Assembly: GCA_003554345.1 (NCBI GenBank)
Contig: PWGE01000222.1
Coordinates: 1-9,364 of the forward strand
Reading direction: 5' to 3'
DNA: 9,364 bases
Source of the DNA: T1SED10-198M sp003554345 [NCBI: Candidatus Sumerlaeota bacterium]
GTDB taxonomy: Bacteria; Sumerlaeota; T1SED10-198M
Positions 80 through 9,322 of this stretch are shown here, in pieces (position 1 is the first letter of the stretch; the number at the start of each line of letters is the position of its first letter). Under the pieces are notes generated by a model. That model worked only from the letters and a program-made list of their open reading frames with translations. It was not told the DNA's origin and made no database searches. A program made the position numbers and the translations under genes.

Positions 80-90
80 TTTTCAGAGGA
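80..90 (+). repeat. Dispersed motif TTTTCAGAGGA, copy 1
   Basis: One of four exact copies of an 11-base word, all outside genes. This copy is preceded by TA, giving the 13-base form TATTTTCAGAGGA shared with copies 2 and 4. A partial copy, TATTTTCAGA, lies at 256-265, just after the 224-245 hairpin. Confidence 0.6.
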
Positions 91-157
91 ATTATTCATG
101 TCAGCACGAGTGCTAACGCAACCAATGATGAATCCGCCATAGACGGACTGTAAGTCG

Positions 158-1950: not shown

Positions 1951-1979
1951 TTGACAAGCGTGATTTATTAAACTATAAT
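1951..1979 (+). promoter_or_regulatory. Perfect consensus sigma-70/sigma-A promoter
   Basis: TTGACA (1951-1956), a 17-base spacer, and TATAAT (1974-1979) match the housekeeping consensus at all twelve positions with optimal spacing. Transcription would begin near 1986 and give a leader of about 40 bases. No operator-like dyad is seen over it, so strong constitutive expression is expected. Confidence 0.9.
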
Positions 1980-2013
1980 ATTTTTAGACCGATTTAATTA
2001 AGAGTAAATAAAA

Positions 2014-2019
2014 AGGAGG
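2014..2019 (+). promoter_or_regulatory. Strong ribosome binding site, AGGAGG
   Basis: A full AGGAGG lies six bases before ATG 2026. It decides that start over the in-frame ATG at 2035. Together with the consensus promoter it implies a highly expressed protein. Confidence 0.9.
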
Positions 2020-2025
2020 CAAATC

Positions 2026-3231
2026 ATGAAGGTCATGAAGTATTTACTGATTATGGTTTTAAGTTTTTTTTTATTCTTCCTGTTTGGAGAACCTTTTGAC
2101 GTTACCTGGGAAGAAATTGGCGAGGGAGACGGAAATTTTTTTGGTGAGGCCGGAGCAGAAGCTGACAAACTTTTTACGGCGGTTGACGATAATTATTTAT
2201 ATTTTCAGGCCAAAAATGAAAGTGCAGGTGAATGGTTGACATGGGCATTTATTATTGATACCAGAGATGGGGGTGGAACCGGATGCCCACAGGGTTATCA
2301 AGTTGGTTTTGGCCATGAAAACCCACCTGATTTTGCCATGATTGGAGATTTTGATGGAAACTGGGGTGAGTTAAGAGTCTGGGATCCAGAAAATTCAGAA
2401 TGGGCTGGTGGTGGGACTAATCTTCCGGACAATTATTACGTTTCTAGTGATCAGACAGTGGTAGAAGTTCGGTTTCCACGAGGAGAGATAAACAGACCCA
2501 ATGCTGTGCACATTCAATATTATATTACAGGAGACAACTCAAGTCAACACGCCTCTTTTGATAGCATTCCAGCTGACGAGGTAGCAGGAAGCTGGGACGA
2601 TTATACTGAACTCTCTAATTATATTTCTGTTTACATGCCTTTTGGCGACCCTTTTGATGTGGTTTGGAATGAAAAAGAGTCAGGTGATGGCAATAGCTTC
2701 ATTGGAGATGCTATTGCAGACAGGCTCTATACTTCAGTTGATGATGACTATCTCTATTTTCGTGCTACTCATCTAAATATAGCTGACTGGAAAACCCCTG
2801 GAATGGTTTGGGCATTCCTCCTTAATACAGCTGCAGGCGGAGGTTCTTCGTGTCCATGGGGCAGAGAAATCTATTTTGATCATCCCGAAAATCCCAATCA
2901 CCTTATGATTGGTCATTTTGGAAGCGATATTGGACAGTTTATTTCCTGGGATGGAACTCAATGGACTGGTTACGAAGTACAACGTGATGGGGATTATTAT
3001 ATGGCTGAAGACCGATCAGAAGTACAGGTTCGATTTGACAAAACAGAAATAGGCGAACCCGCTACTATAGATGTTCAGTATTATATCTCCGGGAATAATG
3101 ATGATCATGGCTGTTTTGATAGTATTCCTTCTGACGAACTAGCCGAAGGCTGGAATCCTCCGGCAAGCACTTCTAATCTATCGAATTATGTTCAAAATGT
3201 CAGCCGCATTAAGGATTGGATTCTTCACTAA
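2026..3231 (+). CDS. Probable exported protein with two tandem beta-sandwich-like domains
   Basis: Function not recognised. Residues 1-20 (two Lys, then a run of Leu, Ile, Phe and Val) act as a signal peptide or anchor; no clear signal peptidase I site is visible. The rest is an internal duplication. Domain 1 (about 20-201) and domain 2 (about 206-388) share FGEPFDV/FGDPFDV (20-26, 206-212), VDDNYLYF/VDDDYLYF (53-60, 238-245), a Cys after a Gly-rich turn (87, 276), IQYYITG/VQYYISG (163-169, 350-356), FDSIP (178-182, 364-368) and LSNY (196-199, 385-388), at a near-constant offset of 185-189. The acidic, aromatic, beta-rich sequence recalls CBM9- or DOMON-like domains that often sit on surface glycan enzymes, but no catalytic domain is present. 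Its own strong promoter and terminator make it monocistronic. The domain class is a guess. Confidence 0.85.
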   Translation: MKVMKYLLIMVLSFFLFFLFGEPFDVTWEEIGEGDGNFFGEAGAEADKLFTAVDDNYLYFQAKNESAGEWLTWAFIIDTRDGGGTGCPQGYQVGFGHENPPDFAMIGDFDGNWGELRVWDPENSEWAGGGTNLPDNYYVSSDQTVVEVRFPRGEINRPNAVHIQYYITGDNSSQHASFDSIPADEVAGSWDDYTELSNYISVYMPFGDPFDVVWNEKESGDGNSFIGDAIADRLYTSVDDDYLYFRATHLNIADWKTPGMVWAFLLNTAAGGGSSCPWGREIYFDHPENPNHLMIGHFGSDIGQFISWDGTQWTGYEVQRDGDYYMAEDRSEVQVRFDKTEIGEPATIDVQYYISGNNDDHGCFDSIPSDELAEGWNPPASTSNLSNYVQNVSRIKDWILH

Positions 3232-3239
3232 CAGAAAAC

Positions 3240-3250
3240 TTTTCAGAGGA
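3240..3250 (+). repeat. Dispersed motif TTTTCAGAGGA, copy 3
   Basis: Exact copy of the 11-base word, starting 9 bases after the stop codon of the two-domain protein gene. It is preceded by C rather than the A found in copies 1, 2 and 4, so only the 11-base core is shared. Confidence 0.55.
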
Positions 3251-3292
3251 ATAAAACAGCGCTAAACATTTACTGAGAAAATAGTTGACAGA

Positions 3293-3720: not shown

Positions 3721-3745
3721 ATTTGAAAAATATTTCATTTCAAAT
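3721..3745. promoter_or_regulatory. Perfect inverted repeat, candidate operator
   Basis: ATTTGAAA (3721-3728) and TTTCAAAT (3738-3745) are exact reverse complements 9 bases apart. The right arm covers the expected -35 position of the 3758-3766 promoter, so a dimeric regulator bound here would block or replace -35 contact. The sequence is AT-rich, which raises the chance of coincidence. The regulator is unknown. Confidence 0.4.
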
Positions 3746-3757
3746 AATTATTAAATG

Positions 3758-3766
3758 TGATATAAT
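3758..3766 (+). promoter_or_regulatory. Extended -10 promoter of the eight-gene cluster
   Basis: TGATATAAT is a perfect extended -10 element (TG-N-TATAAT). The -35 position at 17-base spacing (TTTCAA, 3738-3743) is poor, as is common for extended -10 promoters. Transcription would start near 3773, leaving a leader of about 30 bases before ATG 3805. Confidence 0.65.
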
Positions 3767-3804: not shown

Positions 3805-4305
3805 ATGAATTTCTTTGAGAAAGTGGTTTCTCGAGAAGGGGTGGAAATATATTCTGCACCCCACTCTCGTGAAAAAGCTCTGTACAAGCTCTCTTTATTA
3901 CTCAAAAAGCAGGTAAGCGACGAAGAAGCTACCTGTCGTCAAGTTTATGATGGTGCCATAGAAAGGGAGCATATAGGGTCAACCGCCGTAGGTCATGGGG
4001 TTGCTTATTCTCATTATAATTGCGAGAGTTTAAAAAGATTGTATGCCGTTGTCGGTATTTTCCCAGATGGCATTGTAGCCTGGGAAAGCCCTGATGATAA
4101 ACCCATTCATATTCTCTTTTTAATTGCCTCACCTGATAAAGAGTCCTGCCGCTATTTTGCGTTTATTACACATATTTCCCGTATGTTACGCTCTAACCGT
4201 CTTATTACTGAAATGAAAAACAGCAACAATCCTGATCATATCTATGACTTCCTTCTCCAATGGGAAAGAAAACATGGCACTCAATTATATGTTTGTCAAA
4301 AATAG
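3805..4305 (+). CDS. PTS EIIA domain protein, PtsN/fructose type
   Basis: A single-domain phosphocarrier of the phosphotransferase system, normally phosphorylated on one histidine by HPr or NPr. In free-standing PtsN-type proteins the phosphorylation state is used for regulation rather than sugar transport. The family core is clear: EREHIGSTAVGHGVAYSH (53-70) aligns with the REKMGSTGIGNGIAIPH region of E. coli PtsN, which puts the phosphorylated residue at His70. The Pro usually before it is Ser69. FPDGIVAWESPDDKPIHILFLIASP (85-109) matches the next conserved block. Length, 166 residues, is normal for the family. The start follows AGAGGG (3790-3795). It is the first gene of the cluster, and no EI, HPr or permease gene is nearby, which favours a regulatory role. 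Family is firm, target unknown. Confidence 0.9.
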   Translation: MNFFEKVVSREGVEIYSAPHSREKALYKLSLLLKKQVSDEEATCRQVYDGAIEREHIGSTAVGHGVAYSHYNCESLKRLYAVVGIFPDGIVAWESPDDKPIHILFLIASPDKESCRYFAFITHISRMLRSNRLITEMKNSNNPDHIYDFLLQWERKHGTQLYVCQK

Positions 4306-4313
4306 TAGTTTTT

Positions 4314-4321
4314 GAAGGAAG
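4314..4321 (+). promoter_or_regulatory. Ribosome binding site that sets the HAD gene start
   Basis: GAAGGAAG lies 5 bases before ATG 4327 (7 bases from its AAGGA core). It overlaps the in-frame TTG at 4312, which therefore cannot be the start that uses it. Confidence 0.75.
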
Positions 4322-4326
4322 ACGGG

Positions 4327-4953
4327 ATGGTAAAAAACATTATTTTTGACCTGGGAAATGTTCTTTTCCATCTTAATTTCTCTGCCACGTTCCGTTATCT
4401 TAAAGCACATGTATCAGCAGAAAAAGATGTTGAACATATTTTTCAGGAAGTTATAAGGGGCAAAGAGTTTGATCTCTTTAATCGTGGCAAAATTACCCGC
4501 CAGGAATTTTTCCGGTATGTTCGTCAGTTTTTGGACAAAGTCATTGATGAAGAAGACTTCTGGCGAGGTTATTCCGATATTTTCATTCCCAATCGACGCC
4601 TGATACAGACTATTCCTTCCCTGAAGGAACACTTTCATCTTTTTATTCTCTCCAATACTGATGTTGCCCACATGGAATATCTTTTTCACAAATATCCTCA
4701 CTTTTTCAAGCTCTTTAATGACGCTGTCTACTCTTATGAAGCAGGGGCCATGAAACCAGAACGACAAATATTCAAATTCCTCCTCCATAAAACAGGGATT
4801 ACCGCCTCTTCTTCCCTTTTTATTGATGACCTGTCACATAATATTGAGGTGGCTCAGGAAATGGGCTTCCGGACTTTTCACTTCTCGAACAACACAGATG
4901 AGCTCCTCCATTATATAGAAGAGTTGAAAAACCCAGCAGGAAAACAACATTGA
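4327..4953 (+). CDS. HAD superfamily hydrolase, YihX-like sugar phosphatase
   Basis: A small cytoplasmic phosphatase; E. coli YihX, which it resembles along its length, acts on sugar phosphates such as alpha-glucose-1-phosphate. All HAD motifs are present: motif I FDLGNVL with nucleophile Asp8, motif II LSNT (108-111), motif III Lys143 in MKPE, and motif IV FIDD (Asp167, Asp168). In motif I the usual second Asp is Gly10, as in YihX. Residues about 15-90 form the helical cap of HAD subfamily IA. Length, 208 residues, is normal. ATG 4327 is chosen over TTG 4312 because a good Shine-Dalgarno precedes it. It follows the EIIA gene by 21 bases, and its stop overlaps the next start. Substrate is inferred from resemblance only. 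Confidence 0.9.
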   Translation: MVKNIIFDLGNVLFHLNFSATFRYLKAHVSAEKDVEHIFQEVIRGKEFDLFNRGKITRQEFFRYVRQFLDKVIDEEDFWRGYSDIFIPNRRLIQTIPSLKEHFHLFILSNTDVAHMEYLFHKYPHFFKLFNDAVYSYEAGAMKPERQIFKFLLHKTGITASSSLFIDDLSHNIEVAQEMGFRTFHFSNNTDELLHYIEELKNPAGKQH

Positions 4954-5372
4954 AGGCATTCCGTGTTTTTAAAAATAAGCTCCTCGTCAGAAAAATCAGG
5001 TTTTTTTTCAACGCTATTATTCTCCTCTTTCTTTTTTTTATTATCATTCTTCATAGTGTAGGACTCCGGCATTTTTTCCATTCACCGGTAAACCTCATGA
5101 ATATGGTAATGACATATCGGGAACTGTATCACATTCGCTATGCTCTTGAACGCTATTATGACGACCATGAGGACTATCCTTCGGATCGCGATTTCAAAAA
5201 TTACCTTTATGACCTGGACGTCCAGAAAAGAATCTCTTTAAGAACTGATAGATGGGGAAATCAATACAGGTATTTGCCCGATATTTATGATGATAAAGTG
5301 GTTCTGGTCAGCAAAGGACCAGACGGTATTGTGGGAACAAAGGATGATATAAGACTAATCTGGCAAAAATGA
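4950..5372 (+). CDS. Membrane-anchored protein with GspG-like C-terminal domain
   Basis: Residues 1-17 are basic and 18-37 form one membrane helix, followed by an outside domain. The last 85 residues match the C-terminal pattern of type II secretion major pseudopilins (GspG): a helix with ALERYYDDHEDYPS (65-78), DRWGNQYRY (100-108; GspG has DPWGNPYQY) and SKGPDGIVGTKDDI (121-134), the acidic loop that binds calcium in GspG. However, the class III leader (Gly before a Met/Phe-Thr-Leu-x-Glu stretch) is missing, so prepilin peptidase should not process it and it is unlikely to be a normal pilus subunit. The start is TTG 4950, overlapping the HAD stop (TTGA) and preceded by AGGA at 4938-4941; no in-frame ATG comes before the membrane segment. 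Role unknown; translational coupling ties it to its neighbours. Confidence 0.8.
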   Translation: MKAFRVFKNKLLVRKIRFFFNAIILLFLFFIIILHSVGLRHFFHSPVNLMNMVMTYRELYHIRYALERYYDDHEDYPSDRDFKNYLYDLDVQKRISLRTDRWGNQYRYLPDIYDDKVVLVSKGPDGIVGTKDDIRLIWQK

Positions 5373-5379
5373 GGCAACA

Positions 5380-5925
5380 ATGAAAAAAAAACAGCCTAAA
5401 CTCATTGATACTTTTCAATACCGGTACCTTTTCCAGATTCTTTTCCTCTTTACTTTCTTTTTGATTATAACAGTCTTCCTGACTATTGCCTTCACCCTGA
5501 TTGTTTTCCACTGGGAATTTTTTCTTTCGAGGTACTGGCTATGGACCTGGGTCTACTGTCTGCTGCTCGCATTCCTGCTGGGATTATTGTTTTTCCGCTG
5601 GATATTCCGTTATTCTTTACGAATTGTCCTGCCAATTCATCAATTGAAGAGCTCTTTATCCCGCTTGCTGGCAGGGAATACTGAACAAACTCTCAAGGTT
5701 GAAAAAAGGATGGAATGGGCTGAACTTCTCAGGTTATACAATAAAGTGTTAAAAAAAATCAATGCTGATATGTCTTTATATCATGAGACACTTCTGGATA
5801 CTATCAAAGAGTTAGACGTAATGAAAGAGCTCATTACCCAATTACCACCCTGTGCCCAGAAAACAAAACTGCTCGAACGCGTCAAACAATTGCAACAATC
5901 CTGCTTACTTGAAAATAAAGAATGA
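5380..5925 (+). CDS. Two-TM HAMP-like coiled-coil protein without output domain
   Basis: Two hydrophobic segments (about 19-43 and 53-79) are separated by only about ten residues, so there is no extracytoplasmic sensor domain. The stretch after the second helix (about 81-128) reads like a HAMP linker: a Pro (85) at its start, LSRLLAGNTEQTLKV in the AS1-connector position, and a second amphipathic helix, LLRLYNKVLKKI. Residues about 128-175 look like coiled coil. The protein stops there with no kinase, cyclase or methyl-accepting domain. GAGG (5371-5374) precedes ATG 5380, seven bases after the previous stop. In HAMP proteins this region passes signals between membrane and effector; here it may work as an adaptor, perhaps with the adjacent GspG-like protein. 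That pairing is inferred from adjacency only. Nine A residues follow the ATG. Confidence 0.75.
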   Translation: MKKKQPKLIDTFQYRYLFQILFLFTFFLIITVFLTIAFTLIVFHWEFFLSRYWLWTWVYCLLLAFLLGLLFFRWIFRYSLRIVLPIHQLKSSLSRLLAGNTEQTLKVEKRMEWAELLRLYNKVLKKINADMSLYHETLLDTIKELDVMKELITQLPPCAQKTKLLERVKQLQQSCLLENKE

Positions 5926-6896
5926 AACACATTTTCGGACCTGTACCATCTCGCCGACTGGGCAATTCTCTGGGAATAGACGTTGTTCCTTCTAAAACAT
6001 GCACTTTGAACTGTATATATTGTGAATGTGGCATAACCAATCATTCCCCAGACACTCCAGCTTCTTACTTCTCCCTTTCCTCTGTAAGGCACCAGTTGCA
6101 AGAGGCATTAGCTTCCATACCTGATGGATCATTGGATTATATTACTTTTTCCGGCAGCGGAGAACCTACTCTTAACAAGAACCTGGGAGAAATCATACAA
6201 TGGGTAGTTCAACACCGGCAGGAAAAAGTCGCTGTTATTACCAACTCCACCCTTTTGTATCAGGAAAACGTTCGCGAGGCATTAAAAAATGCTCACCTTA
6301 TAATGCCTACCCTTTGCACCACCAATGCCAGCACTTTTTCAAAAATCCATCGTCCCGTTTCTGACAGGATAACCGTAGAAAAGGTCATGGAAGGTATAAG
6401 ACTTTTCAGCAAATCTTATGAAGGAGAAATACATATAGAAATATTTTTTGTCCCTGGTTTAAATGATACAAGTACCGAAATAAAAAATCTCATACGATTT
6501 TTAAAAACCATTTCCTTCCAAAAAATTTATTTAAACACCGCCAACAGACCCGGGACAGAACCTGAGGTAAAGAAAATGACCCACTCCAGGTTACTTGATC
6601 TAAAGCAGGCTTTCCCTTCAGACTGGATTGTAGAAACATCGGGAGATTATTTCACAAAAAAAGATAAAACCATACAATATGCATGGAAAAGCTTGAAGGA
6701 AATGTTACTCCGACGTCCTGTCGCCCTATCAGAACTATCAAAGATGACCGGATTGGATGATACCCAACTTTTACAGGAATTGCAAAAACTGGCGCACACC
6801 AATAAATTATCCTTGAAAAAATACCAACAAAATGGTTTTTATTTCCTTCGCTTCTTCCATCAACAGGATGCCAATGAACGCTATTTTTCAGGTTGA
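5922..6896 (+). CDS. Radical SAM protein, COG0731 type, with C-terminal winged-helix-like region
   Basis: A cytoplasmic iron-sulfur enzyme that would use S-adenosylmethionine to make a radical. The opening FGPVPSRRLGNSLGIDVVPS (5-24) and the cluster motif CTLNCIYC (Cys27, Cys31, Cys34) are typical of the COG0731 group, which is distantly related to wyosine-type tRNA-modifying enzymes. GSGEPT (78-83) is the SAM-binding glycine motif, and LNTANRPGTEPE (204-215) is another group marker. Residues about 255-311 look like a winged helix (ALSELSKMTGLDDTQLLQELQKL), as in some group members, possibly for nucleic-acid or protein binding. ATG 5922 overlaps the previous stop by four bases (ATGA), supporting this start. 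The substrate of the group is not established to my knowledge, so the wyosine link should not be taken as function. Confidence 0.92.
   Translation: MKHIFGPVPSRRLGNSLGIDVVPSKTCTLNCIYCECGITNHSPDTPASYFSLSSVRHQLQEALASIPDGSLDYITFSGSGEPTLNKNLGEIIQWVVQHRQEKVAVITNSTLLYQENVREALKNAHLIMPTLCTTNASTFSKIHRPVSDRITVEKVMEGIRLFSKSYEGEIHIEIFFVPGLNDTSTEIKNLIRFLKTISFQKIYLNTANRPGTEPEVKKMTHSRLLDLKQAFPSDWIVETSGDYFTKKDKTIQYAWKSLKEMLLRRPVALSELSKMTGLDDTQLLQELQKLAHTNKLSLKKYQQNGFYFLRFFHQQDANERYFSG
6863..6868 (+). promoter_or_regulatory. Ribosome binding site inside the radical SAM gene
   Basis: ACAGGA lies five bases before ATG 6874. It favours this start over ATG 6832 and over ATG 6868, which is too close to the AGG. 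Confidence 0.55.
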
Positions 6897-7554
6897 ATTG
6901 AAAAGAATATACAGGCAACTTCGAAGCCACCAGAAAAATATCATTCAAGATGTCTCTTTCCATGCTTCACCGGGATCCGTCATTGATATCACAGGAACCT
7001 CCGGCAGTGGAAAAACCACCCTTCTACTGGCACTCAATTTACAGGTACCTTTTGAAGGCTTTATTCGTTTCGGGGACAAAAAACATGATGCCTTTTCTCC
7101 ACCCTACTGGAGAGCCACCATTTCTTATCTTCCTTCCAAAATCCAGCCGGTTTCACAGTCCATAAAGTCATTTTTGCTGTATCCTTTTTCTTTTCGTATT
7201 CATAGAGAAAAAAAAACGCCCTCAATCCCCACCATTCTTTCTCTGATGAAAGAGTTAGCCTGTCCCCTTTCCCTGGACGAAAATATACAGGAAGTGTCGC
7301 TGGGACAACAGTATCGCCTGAGTTTTCTACGTCTTTATCTTTTGCAACCATCAGTCTATTTGCTTGACGAACCCTTTGCCAATCTTGATCCTGAGAATAT
7401 GAAAAGATTACATGGCATCCTTCAAAGAGAAGCAGAGAAAGGAAAAATCGTCATCAGGGGGATGCATACTACTTCAGAATATCCTGCTCATCAGACATTT
7501 GATATCAAAGAAGGAAAGTTTTTGACACAAAAGGACAACATCAATGTACATTGA
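6874..7554 (+). CDS. fetA: ABC transporter ATPase, FetA (YbbL)-like
   Basis: Energises the FetB permease encoded next, as in the E. coli FetAB exporter linked to iron export and peroxide tolerance. Walker A is GTSGSGKTT (41-49), Walker B VYLLDEP (161-167) with catalytic Glu166, the D-loop ANLD (169-172) and the switch His198. The signature reads VSLGQQYR (141-148), with Leu143 where LSGGQ has its first Gly. Where the Q-loop Gln is expected, after SYLP, there is Ser88, with Gln91 slightly later. Both are departures from the norm. Length from ATG 6874 is 226 residues, usual for the family; this start has ACAGGA upstream and overlaps the radical SAM gene by 23 bases. An ATG at 6832 would add 14 residues. 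Nine A residues at 7208-7216 are a possible slippage site. Metal specificity is inferred. Confidence 0.88.
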   Translation: MNAIFQVELKRIYRQLRSHQKNIIQDVSFHASPGSVIDITGTSGSGKTTLLLALNLQVPFEGFIRFGDKKHDAFSPPYWRATISYLPSKIQPVSQSIKSFLLYPFSFRIHREKKTPSIPTILSLMKELACPLSLDENIQEVSLGQQYRLSFLRLYLLQPSVYLLDEPFANLDPENMKRLHGILQREAEKGKIVIRGMHTTSEYPAHQTFDIKEGKFLTQKDNINVH

Positions 7555-8359
7555 AATCCCATTCTGGCGCCTCCTCATGCTGGCAATTCCCCTGGCATTC
7601 ACTCTTTTTCTTTTATATCTTATAAAAGTAAAATTTATCAGAGCTTACTGGATCGCCTCACTACGTGCCGTTATCCAGCTCATCATACTGGGCTGGATAT
7701 TCGCCTATATGTTTTATTATGAGAATATCTGGATATCAGTTGGTTTTCTTCTTGTTCTTTTTCTTTTCGCCTCATGGCACCTGATTTCGATGTTTTACCA
7801 TGTTCCCAGGGTAAAAGGACCGGTCTGTATCTCCCTGGGCATGGTGGGTTTTCTCATGCTTTTCTTCCTGCTCGGGGGTATTATTCATATTGAACCATGG
7901 TATAATATACAGTATCTATTACCGTTAGCGGGGATGGTTTTAGGAAATACAATGAACTCAGTCGCTCTTTCCAGCGAACGTTTCGTTTCTGAGCTGGAGG
8001 GAAATACTCTTACCATAGAGAGCCATCTTGCCCTGGGAGCAACTTCTTATGAAGCAGTAGCACCTTACATTCGCTCGGCTCTCTTTGCCAGTCTTTTGCC
8101 TGTCATTAATCGTACAGCCACCGTGGGAGTGGTCTCTATTCCCGGCATAATGAGCGGACAGATAATTGCGGGAATCGATCCCTTTCAGGCAGCAAAATAT
8201 CAAATAGCCATAATGATTTGCATTCTGACTGCAGATACTTTAGGAGCCATATTATCGGTATTCCTCATCTACCGTAATTATTTCGGAAGAAAAATTCCTT
8301 TAAAATACAAGGATGCCCGAACAAGAACATTCAAGGACACTGCTGATACAAATGAATAG
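7544..8359 (+). CDS. fetB: FetB-like metal exporter permease (UPF0014 family)
   Basis: The integral membrane half of a FetAB-type exporter in the inner membrane. Hydrophobic segments lie at about 9-27, 38-57, 62-84, 95-117, 122-142, 179-203 and 219-243, consistent with a six- to seven-helix permease. Family blocks are plain: LPLAGMVLGNTMNSVAL (126-142), LALGATSYEAV (162-172), VGVVSIPGIMSGQIIAGIDP (194-213) and AAKYQI (216-221), matching E. coli FetB in order and spacing. Length, 271 residues, is slightly more than E. coli FetB because of a polar C-terminal tail. ATG 7544 follows AGGA (7532-7535) and overlaps the ATPase gene by 11 bases, so the two halves are translationally coupled. Iron as substrate rests on the E. 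coli example. Confidence 0.92.
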   Translation: MYIEIPFWRLLMLAIPLAFTLFLLYLIKVKFIRAYWIASLRAVIQLIILGWIFAYMFYYENIWISVGFLLVLFLFASWHLISMFYHVPRVKGPVCISLGMVGFLMLFFLLGGIIHIEPWYNIQYLLPLAGMVLGNTMNSVALSSERFVSELEGNTLTIESHLALGATSYEAVAPYIRSALFASLLPVINRTATVGVVSIPGIMSGQIIAGIDPFQAAKYQIAIMICILTADTLGAILSVFLIYRNYFGRKIPLKYKDARTRTFKDTADTNE

Positions 8360-9254
8360 AAAAAAATTAAAAATTGGCATTGGGTTTACGGCCCTGCTAG
8401 TAATATGGGCTGTTTCAATGTATGGGCTCTATTTGCGAGAAAAAGGGTATTTCATAGAAGCAGAAGAAATCAGACAATACCGGAGTTTTATTGACTTTGA
8501 ACTGCCCACCCAGCTGAATCAATACTATAAAATTTCAGTGCTGGATAATACAGTGGGTTATTATTACACCCGCTTAGAACCTCATGAAGAAGATTATTAT
8601 TACAATAAACACCAGGAACTGATGTTCATGCTCTCTGATTTAGGTGAAATGCCGTTGTACTTTAACATGCAGACGGAGTCTTCTCATAATCTGGACGGTT
8701 CCTTAATGTTTCAGGAAGGCACCCTGGAGGTAAATGAAGAAAATATCGATTTTCAGGGAAATGTAGTGAATGGAAGTGCTGTTTTTGATATAGATTACCG
8801 GGATAGAACCTATAATAGAGAATTCGAACTCCCCGACCATTATCTTACCCTTGACCTTTTTTCACCTTTTAATATCGACTTCAGTCAATTTGTTCTCCAG
8901 GAAACATACAAATTAGAAACTTTTTTTCCTCATCTGGTAGACTTTCCACAGTCTCTCTACCTCCGCTTGGAAGAAATTACAGAGATAACCCACAACGACC
9001 ATCGCGAGGAAGTGTATCTCGTCTATCTTTTTGATGAAAATGAAACATTTTCCAGCCAGCTGTGGGTTGATAAAGAAAACCAGGTACTCCAGCAGACCTT
9101 TCAAAATTTCGTCACCATAGAAAGAATCAACGATGAGGAACACGCCCTATTAGAGGAAGAATTTAAAAATCTTAAAGCAGGTCGCAGCTGGCAGGAATTA
9201 CCGGATCTTTCCCCCATTCTGGAAGGCGAATGGTGGCGGGGATTCCCCTTGTAA
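8352..9254 (+). CDS. Membrane-anchored extracytoplasmic protein of unknown function
   Basis: Not recognised. Residues 1-6 are basic, 7-28 form one membrane helix, and the remaining 270 residues are acidic, aromatic and beta-rich and should lie outside the cytoplasm. VLDNTVGYYYTRLE (63-76), followed by SHNLDGSLMFQEG (111-123) and an alternating VNEENIDFQGNVVNGSAVFDID stretch (127-148), loosely recalls secreted proteins encoded beside some transglutaminase-like genes, but I cannot name a family. It has no catalytic motif that I can see and no cysteine, so it is not a lipoprotein. ATG 8352 overlaps the fetB stop by eight bases; AAGGA at 8333-8337 is rather far upstream. An in-frame ATG at 8313 would add 13 residues and place a polar stretch before the helix. 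Coupling to fetB suggests an accessory role to the exporter, which is inference. Confidence 0.8.
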   Translation: MNRKKLKIGIGFTALLVIWAVSMYGLYLREKGYFIEAEEIRQYRSFIDFELPTQLNQYYKISVLDNTVGYYYTRLEPHEEDYYYNKHQELMFMLSDLGEMPLYFNMQTESSHNLDGSLMFQEGTLEVNEENIDFQGNVVNGSAVFDIDYRDRTYNREFELPDHYLTLDLFSPFNIDFSQFVLQETYKLETFFPHLVDFPQSLYLRLEEITEITHNDHREEVYLVYLFDENETFSSQLWVDKENQVLQQTFQNFVTIERINDEEHALLEEEFKNLKAGRSWQELPDLSPILEGEWWRGFPL

Positions 9255-9298: not shown

Positions 9299-9322
9299 TT
9301 TTCAGATCTCTTCCTCTGAAAA
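9299..9322. repeat. 8-bp inverted repeat after the last gene, containing motif copy 4
   Basis: TTTTCAGA (9299-9306) and TCTGAAAA (9315-9322) pair perfectly around an 8-base loop. The right side, read on the minus strand from 9322 to 9312, is copy 4 of TTTTCAGAGGA, with the GGGTTTA prefix also seen near copy 2. No T-run follows, so it is a poor terminator. No better one is seen between 9255 and 9364; a 4-5 base CAGA/TCTG pairing before the T-run at 9296-9302 is too weak to call. Confidence 0.5.

What the first reader, a model, noticed from the sequence alone, without database searches (positions are those of the whole stretch)
3805..9254. Eight-gene overlapping cluster joining EIIA, HAD, GspG-like, HAMP-like, radical SAM and FetAB proteins
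Seven junctions have gaps of 21 bases or less and five are overlaps, so co-transcription is very likely. I know of no described operon with this gene set. If the order is kept in other genomes, it could be a membrane system in which a phosphocarrier and stripped-down membrane signalling proteins govern metal export or modification.
Basis: partly seen in the sequence, partly recalled or inferred. Interest (0 to 1): 0.68.

Follow-up and report, generated by a model that had tools for sequence, protein, structure and literature searches.

The report
Packed operon hiding pilin–HAMP pair
Eight tightly packed bacterial genes look like one machine but seem to be mostly chance neighbours; inside them sits a small conserved pair, a pilus-subunit-like protein and a stripped-down sensor-like protein, whose relatives recur in other bacteria.

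Summary
The eight genes and their tight junctions are real, but the order was not found elsewhere. EIIA, radical SAM, FetB and the last gene, sought in 99-147 genomes each, share no close neighbourhood apart from one EIIA-radical SAM case on opposite strands; HAD was sought only in fetched loci. Tight packing looks ordinary here: 15 of 18 same-strand junctions in four other contigs of this genome are 21 bases or less. One eight-part membrane system is therefore not supported. Two pairs inside are conserved. FetA-FetB is the familiar transporter pair. In the other, gene 3 is a GspG-fold pilin-like protein without a prepilin cleavage site, and gene 4 is a two-helix HAMP-only protein. They stand side by side in all five of 242 genomes with a strong gene 3 match, in four families of one phylum. 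Gene 4 belongs to a widespread family ("FQ-HAMP") whose genes often adjoin true prepilin genes: 9 of 60 newly sampled loci against 0 of 40 controls. My reading is a membrane pilin-and-sensor pair, analogous to PilA-PilS, inside a lineage-specific packed operon. Contact, signal and output are unproven.

The parts
3739..3766 (+). possible promoter of the run (TTCAAA-16-TATAAT, TG before the second hexamer)
   Evidence: consensus scan, chance-level in number
3805..4305 (+). g1: PTS EIIA-2 domain protein, PtsN-like; histidine H70 at the position of the PtsN histidine
   Evidence: PF00359 77.9 bits, cut-off 27; TIGR01419 below its cut-off; alignment to PtsN; H70 checked; that this is the phosphorylated residue is recalled
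4327..4953 (+). g2: HAD-IA family hydrolase
   Evidence: PF00702 40.6 bits over 26.4; TIGR01509 46.9 over 29.4
4950..5372 (+). g3: membrane-anchored GspG-like pilin-fold protein without a prepilin cleavage site
   Evidence: T2SSG 24.6 bits over 21, no N_methyl match; model pLDDT 83.2; seven best realigned PDB chains are GspG-type pseudopilins, Z 9.7 to 8.3; relatives; found at 9.9e-13 by a profile built without it
5380..5925 (+). g4: FQ-HAMP family protein, two membrane helices, degenerate HAMP, short coiled coil, no output domain found
   Evidence: found at 7.1e-16 by a profile of 22 relatives built without it, next ORF 0.004; no Pfam HAMP match itself
5922..6896 (+). g5: radical SAM enzyme of unknown substrate (CTLNCIYC at residues 27-34)
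   Evidence: PF04055 56.1 bits over 29.5; no curated equivalog reached among those listed; motif
6868..7554 (+). g6: FetA-like ABC ATPase
   Evidence: PF00005 68.1 bits over 25; NF007601 FetA is the best model but 86.1 of 292; both scans used the longer frame from 6832
7544..8359 (+). g7: FetB/UPF0014 permease
   Evidence: PF03649 223.9 bits over 22.6; TIGR00245 122.9 of 410
8352..9254 (+). g8: orphan with one N-terminal hydrophobic helix (read by eye); alternative start 8313
   Evidence: no family over a cut-off; found only in its own genome among 147; structure model unusable, pLDDT 39.4

Best explanation
The run is one tightly packed, probably co-transcribed stretch of a compact genome, assembled in this lineage from parts that mostly do not depend on each other. 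Shown by comparison: two two-gene modules inside it recur elsewhere (g3-g4, and FetA-FetB), while no other combination does in what I searched. Inferred mechanism of g3-g4: g3 is a pilin-fold protein whose long N-terminal helix stays in the inner membrane because it lacks a prepilin peptidase site; g4 is a HAMP-only protein whose two membrane helices contact that helix, so that the amount or state of the pilin-like protein shifts the HAMP and its short cytoplasmic coiled coil. This is the logic reported for PilA with PilS and minor pilins with FimS, and proposed for PilA with PilJ, but without an attached kinase or receptor domain, so the signal must pass to a separate partner, or the pair is an assembly scaffold. 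Inferred for the rest: FetAB exports a metal or another small substrate, EIIA is charged by the cell's EI and HPr, HAD and radical SAM act on their own substrates.
For: Scattering: places in the lists (the EIIA list is cut) give one close EIIA-radical SAM pair, on opposite strands (G037), and none with FetB; 40 regions read; 80 named FetB loci, the best 80 of at least 590, with FetA directly upstream in 68 and none of the other six genes; 420 loci together. Packing is ordinary. Pair: g3 profile over 70 bits in 5 of 242 genomes (next 42 bits; 72 of 242 have some match at E 0.001), and in 5 of 5 the g4 relative follows at once, overlapping by 4, 4, 4 and 8 bases in the four others. Fold of g3 is GspG-like. 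FQ-HAMP genes have a same-strand prepilin within 1.2 kb in 9 of 60 new loci versus 0 of 40 loci round full-length HAMP proteins, one-sided Fisher p 0.008; among 25 earlier loci 6 within 1.2 kb, 8 within 3 kb. On the tree the prepilin label needs 8 changes, 5 forced by starred branches. EI and HPr are present. Precedents: passages of PMC5979040 and PMC9210963.
Against: No member of the same class as the window's organism was held, so conservation among close relatives is untested. 51 of 60 new FQ-HAMP loci have no canonical prepilin within 5 kb (some contigs end sooner), so pairing is a tendency, not a rule; the nine positives are all among the 24 best-scoring loci. Four of twelve FQ-HAMP loci of the window's own phylum that I looked at have neither a prepilin nor g3 nearby (L309, L310, L312, L317). 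No direct evidence of contact between g3 and g4, nor of any signal. g4 of the window is a very long branch (2.84), so it may have drifted from the family's function. The genome searches scored at most 17, 13 and 8 candidates per genome, so members can have been missed.
Confidence: 0.7

Rival explanations
1. The whole run is one dedicated system of the organism's own class: the pilin-HAMP pair and EIIA control a FetAB-type exporter, with radical SAM and HAD enzymes making or modifying the substrate and g8 as its periplasmic part.
For: Five overlaps suggest translational coupling. In two other genomes of the phylum the g3-g4 pair follows a permease-like membrane protein (by eye; no family match), in G032 with an ABC ATPase before it, so a pair next to a transporter recurs, though of another kind. 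EI and HPr exist to charge EIIA.
Against: Apart from that G032 locus, where g3, g4 and a distant ABC ATPase lie together, no fetched locus holds three of the eight genes. The two other pair loci, G007 and G023, show no ABC ATPase in the stretch held. Packing is ordinary here. g8 has no relative in 147 genomes.
Confidence: 0.15
2. g3-g4 is a structural, not signalling, module: g4 is an inner-membrane platform or assembly helper for pilin-like proteins, and its HAMP part is only a dimerisation helix.
For: No output domain was found in g4, and the family members aligned are 139-208 residues long; two relatives lie among minor-pilin-like genes by eye (L229, L308).
Against: Pfam HAMP is still matched by 14 of 23 members at E 0.01 or better, which suggests that its two-state property is used.
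Confidence: 0.3
3. g3-g4 is a decaying remnant of a secretion or pilus locus.
For: Long branch and no Pfam HAMP match in the window's g4; no cleavage site in g3.
Against: The form without a cleavage site is shared by five genomes in four families with open frames, so it is a kept form rather than one lineage's decay; the WG, GPD and DD positions of the pilin domain are invariant in the five.
Confidence: 0.1

Closest known systems
GspG/PulG major pseudopilin (T2SS), T2SSG domain
   Same: C-terminal domain and overall fold of g3; best PDB matches by profile and by model
   Different: No prepilin cleavage site with Glu5 in g3 or its four relatives (by eye); no other T2SS gene in the run
Pilin-sensing membrane proteins PilS, FimS, PilJ of Pseudomonas
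   Same: A membrane protein reported or proposed to contact pilin subunits in the inner membrane (passages of PMC5979040 and PMC9210963)
   Different: g4 has no kinase or receptor output domain and is encoded next to a single pilin-like gene
FetA-FetB iron exporter / UPF0014
   Same: ATPase-permease gene pair in the usual order (68 of 80 named loci; 10 of 20 unnamed regions)
   Different: Below the curated FetA and FetB cut-offs; orphan g8 attached
PtsN (EIIA-Ntr)
   Same: EIIA-2 domain and the histidine
   Different: Below the PtsN cut-off; no recognisable nitrogen-regulation gene in the window

Membership tests
GspG/type IV pilin | prepilin peptidase site (G, then Glu at position 5) and N-terminal methylation motif | tested here: not met
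   no N_methyl or TIGR02532 match for the window's g3, none by Pfam in three relatives scanned; absent by eye in all five aligned sequences
GspG/type IV pilin | T2SSG C-terminal domain and pilin fold | tested here: met
   PF08334 24.6 over 21, in relatives 23.8, 17.9 and 18.2, so two below the cut-off; model and PDB comparison
HAMP-domain protein | Pfam HAMP at its cut-off | tested here: not met
   g4 itself has no HAMP match
FQ-HAMP family as defined here | matched by a profile of the relatives (N-terminal FQ motif, two membrane helices, HAMP-like segment) | tested here: met
   E 7.1e-16 with a profile that leaves the window out
FetAB iron exporter | UPF0014 permease next to its ATPase | tested here: met
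   PF03649 223.9 bits; order as in 68 of 80
FetAB iron exporter | curated equivalog cut-offs TIGR00245 and NF007601 | tested here: not met
   122.9 of 410 and 86.1 of 292
FetAB iron exporter | iron export | not testable with these tools
   needs a transport assay
PtsN | EIIA-2 domain with the histidine; EI and HPr in the cell | tested here: met
PtsN | curated equivalog cut-off TIGR01419 | tested here: not met
   51.6 of 138.7
Radical SAM enzyme | CxxxCxxC in the radical SAM domain | tested here: met
   PF04055 and CTLNCIYC
Conserved eight-gene operon | gene order kept in other genomes | tested here: not met
   limits: no same-class genome held, HAD sought only in fetched loci

The most novel reading that the evidence does not exclude
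FQ-HAMP proteins are a widespread, undescribed class of HAMP-only membrane proteins that read pilin-like subunits in the inner membrane, and in this phylum the pilin has become a dedicated, uncut, non-polymerising sensor subunit encoded together with its reader.
Probability: 0.3. Interest if true: 0.65.

Novelty: new variant of a known kind. Interest (0 to 1): 0.4.

Why it matters
How pilus state is sensed at the inner membrane is debated for PilA and PilJ (passages of PMC9210963). A minimal two-gene pair of one pilin-like protein and one HAMP-only protein would be a simple system in which to test it. The negative half matters too: it warns that tight packing in compact genomes is weak evidence for a shared function.

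Tried and rejected
One eight-gene system: rejected on gene order. EIIA next to an ABC ATPase in L070, L072 and L078: from recall, this is the well-known lptB-rpoN-ptsN type of neighbourhood, not FetA; not tested. EIIA and radical SAM on one contig of G037 (L112): opposite strands, over 5 kb apart; by my rough estimate, made in no call, about one such case is expected by chance. ABC ATPases near radical SAM (L118, L124) were not followed.

g8: no family over a cut-off in Pfam or NCBIfam and none in PHROGs. Its PDB search at a loose threshold gave eight weak matches, the best five being distinct sequences of one clostridial neurotoxin (20.8 bits, E 0.002) over about 90 residues; no family search supports it, and I take it as a chance match and did not follow it. 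A single-sequence model of g8 was useless (pLDDT 39.4) and was not searched.

Rfam found nothing in the window at gathering scores. Paper searches for HAMP proteins with pilins showed no description of such a gene pair in the rows listed; most listings show only the top 10-20 rows, and the library holds only open-licence papers. (FetAB) was read as a listing only.

Limits of the counts: the two control sets differ. One search counted any prepilin-like motif anywhere in 40 loci round FetB or radical SAM (1 of 40); one search counted round full-length HAMP matches (0 of 40, within 5 kb). The 60 new loci are the best-scoring FQ-HAMP rows that were not in the profile, in order, with one row left out because it lay inside a region already taken (G169:C13). 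Several genomes gave more than one locus, and some new positives are close relatives of earlier ones on the tree (L332 with L321, L331 with L316), so the 60 are not independent. The positives are all among the first 24 rows: 9 of 24, then 0 of 36. Two of the 60 (L342, L344) are longer proteins, L344 being a positive. The seed loci were found with a profile that held the window's g4; one search repeats the membership test without it. The prepilin label is clustered on the tree (0 of 500 shuffles as low). Of the weaker g3 matches, 12 loci that I read have no g4 relative. Labels such as recA, methionine synthase, phage-structural and minor-pilin-like for genes of other loci were read by eye, without a family search.
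Full report
What is there. The window covers bases 1-9364 of contig C435 of an unnamed 2.55-Mb genome in 454 contigs, 87.7% complete. The eight + strand genes are real, with junctions of 21, -4, 7, -4, -29 (or -23), -11 and -8 (or -47) bases. Families: PTS EIIA-2, HAD-IA hydrolase, T2SSG domain, an unassigned two-helix membrane protein, radical SAM, ABC ATPase closest to FetA, UPF0014/FetB permease, and an orphan.

Is the tightness telling? In four other contigs of the same genome (L244, L245, L246, L431), 15 of 18 same-strand junctions as called by a simple script are 21 bases or less, including neighbours that by eye are recA and a methionine-synthase-like gene 12 bases apart. Seven tight junctions in a row are thus not remarkable here.

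Is the order kept? The held genomes include 39 others of the phylum, none closer. Matches at E 0.001, own genome included: radical SAM in 72 of 99 genomes, FetB in 25 of 147 (5 of the 39), EIIA in 112 of 147, the orphan g8 in 1 of 147, its own; single-sequence searches gave g4 in 14 and g3 in 17 of 147. The places listed (the EIIA list is cut) show one EIIA-radical SAM pair within 6 kb, on opposite strands, and no FetB near either. Of 40 regions read, 20 round FetB and 20 round radical SAM, FetA lies beside FetB in 10 of 20, and otherwise only that one pair and two ABC ATPases some kilobases from radical SAM (L118, L124) were seen. Of 80 named FetB loci, the best 80 of at least 590, 68 have FetA directly upstream and none has another of the eight genes; profiles of g3 and g4 found nothing convincing there either. 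In 420 fetched loci (3.4 Mb, many overlapping, own genome left out) tblastn found FetA-FetB together in 89, g3-g4 in 4 (all of genome G032, two with a distant ABC ATPase), EIIA with an ABC ATPase in 3 and three other single combinations.

The g3-g4 pair. A g3 profile scored over 70 bits in five of 242 genomes: the window's own, G024 and G032 (one family), G007 and G023; the next match had 42 bits, and 72 of 242 had some match at E 0.001. In all five a relative of g4 follows at once, overlapping by 4, 4, 4 and 8 bases in the four others and 7 bases apart in the window. That is 4 of 39 other phylum genomes, in three other families, and 0 of 202 outside the phylum. Twelve loci with weaker g3 matches that I read have no g4 relative. 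In G032 an ABC ATPase and, by eye, a permease-like membrane protein precede the pair, and in G024 the end of a similar protein does; G007 and G023 show no ABC ATPase in the stretch held. Profiles without the window's row find g3 at 9.9e-13 and g4 at 7.1e-16, each as the best of 7,859 open frames.

What g3 is. None of the five g3 proteins shows a prepilin cleavage site, yet they share the WG, GPD and DD positions of the GspG domain. The model (five rows, pLDDT 83.2) is a long N-terminal helix followed by a small sheet; the seven best PDB chains after realignment are all GspG-type pseudopilins (Z 9.7 to 8.3, rmsd 2.3-3.4 over 87-95 residues), although Foldseek E-values are weak (0.007 at best). 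g3 is best described as a pilin-fold protein that stays uncut in the membrane; the last step is inferred.

What g4 is. It belongs to a family that I call FQ-HAMP: a basic N-terminus with an FQ motif, a helix, a short loop, a helix, a HAMP segment (SHRIAGPxYR in the consensus) and a short coiled coil, with no output domain. Pfam HAMP is met at E 0.01 by 14 of 23 members, not by the window's own. Of the curated models, none dedicated to it was met by the members scanned.

FQ-HAMP and pilins. While reading loci I saw prepilin genes beside FQ-HAMP genes. I then kept the same motif rule and took 60 new FQ-HAMP loci and 40 loci round full-length HAMP proteins. A same-strand prepilin lies within 1.2 kb in 9 of 60 against 0 of 40 (Fisher one-sided p 0.008). 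Among the 25 earlier loci it was 6 within 1.2 kb and 8 within 3 kb, the five g3-type loci counting as none. Ten neighbours checked by Pfam include seven N_methyl prepilins, two of them with T2SSG as well (L322, L323); L336 has a weak T2SSG match without Glu5 directly upstream, and L315 and L333 have small single-helix proteins without a match. In a tree of 83 FQ-HAMP proteins, 10 of the 11 rows of the window's phylum group together (support 94, not starred): 5 beside g3-type genes, 1 beside a prepilin, 2 within 3 kb of one and 2 with neither; the eleventh (L310) also has neither. The prepilin label as a whole needs 8 changes, 5 of them forced by starred branches, and is clustered. So the link is recurrent but not universal: 51 of 60 new loci lack a canonical prepilin within 5 kb, and the positives are in the better-scoring part of the list.

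How it may work. In Pseudomonas, FimS was found to interact with each pilin tested by two-hybrid assay and PilS with PilA (passages of PMC5979040), and PilA is proposed to contact PilJ (passages of PMC9210963). The g3-g4 pair would be a stripped version: pilin helix against the two helices of a HAMP-only protein. Contact, signal and output are all inferred. An assembly-helper role is the main rival.

The other genes. EIIA keeps a histidine at the PtsN position (H70), and EI and HPr lie together on contig C107, so it can probably be charged. Radical SAM has CTLNCIYC and no curated function. FetAB is the usual pair. Nothing ties these to g3-g4 beyond position.

Verdict. Observation confirmed; the one-system reading not supported by what could be searched; a conserved pilin-HAMP pair, of which I found no description, lies inside it.

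Noticed in passing
window 80-91, 529-540, 3240-3251 (+), 9311-9322 (-): A short motif TTTTCAGAGGAA occurs four times (one mismatch allowed), all outside the assigned genes; 0.24 expected. A 10-base form of it occurs once in another contig of the genome (L245).
   Followed up: partly
window 1951-3231: A secreted-looking 401-aa protein made of two similar halves (by eye; one 48-base repeat), with no family over a cut-off, behind a perfect TTGACA-17-TATAAT site at 1951-1979.
   Followed up: no
L306 (G007:C76): The g3-g4 pair of this genome lies on a contig whose other strand carries genes that by eye look phage-structural, interleaved with membrane-protein genes; possibly a prophage or an assembly join.
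   Followed up: no
L227 4441-5367 (-) and L228 1455-2510 (-): In both genomes a radical SAM gene, of another kind than g5 by eye, faces the g3-g4 pair from the opposite strand (Pfam for L227).
   Followed up: no
L229, L308, L313: FQ-HAMP genes of the same phylum lie in or near clusters of prepilin-type genes.
   Followed up: partly
L343, L355, L370, L376: Some FQ-HAMP genes without prepilins lie next to proteins with CxxCH motifs (by eye), perhaps a second kind of partner.
   Followed up: no
L336 5417-5830 (-), L333 5317-5706 (-), L315 3151-3474 (+): Small single-helix proteins without the canonical prepilin site directly beside FQ-HAMP genes outside the phylum, pilin-like by eye; only L336 has a weak T2SSG match.
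   Followed up: partly
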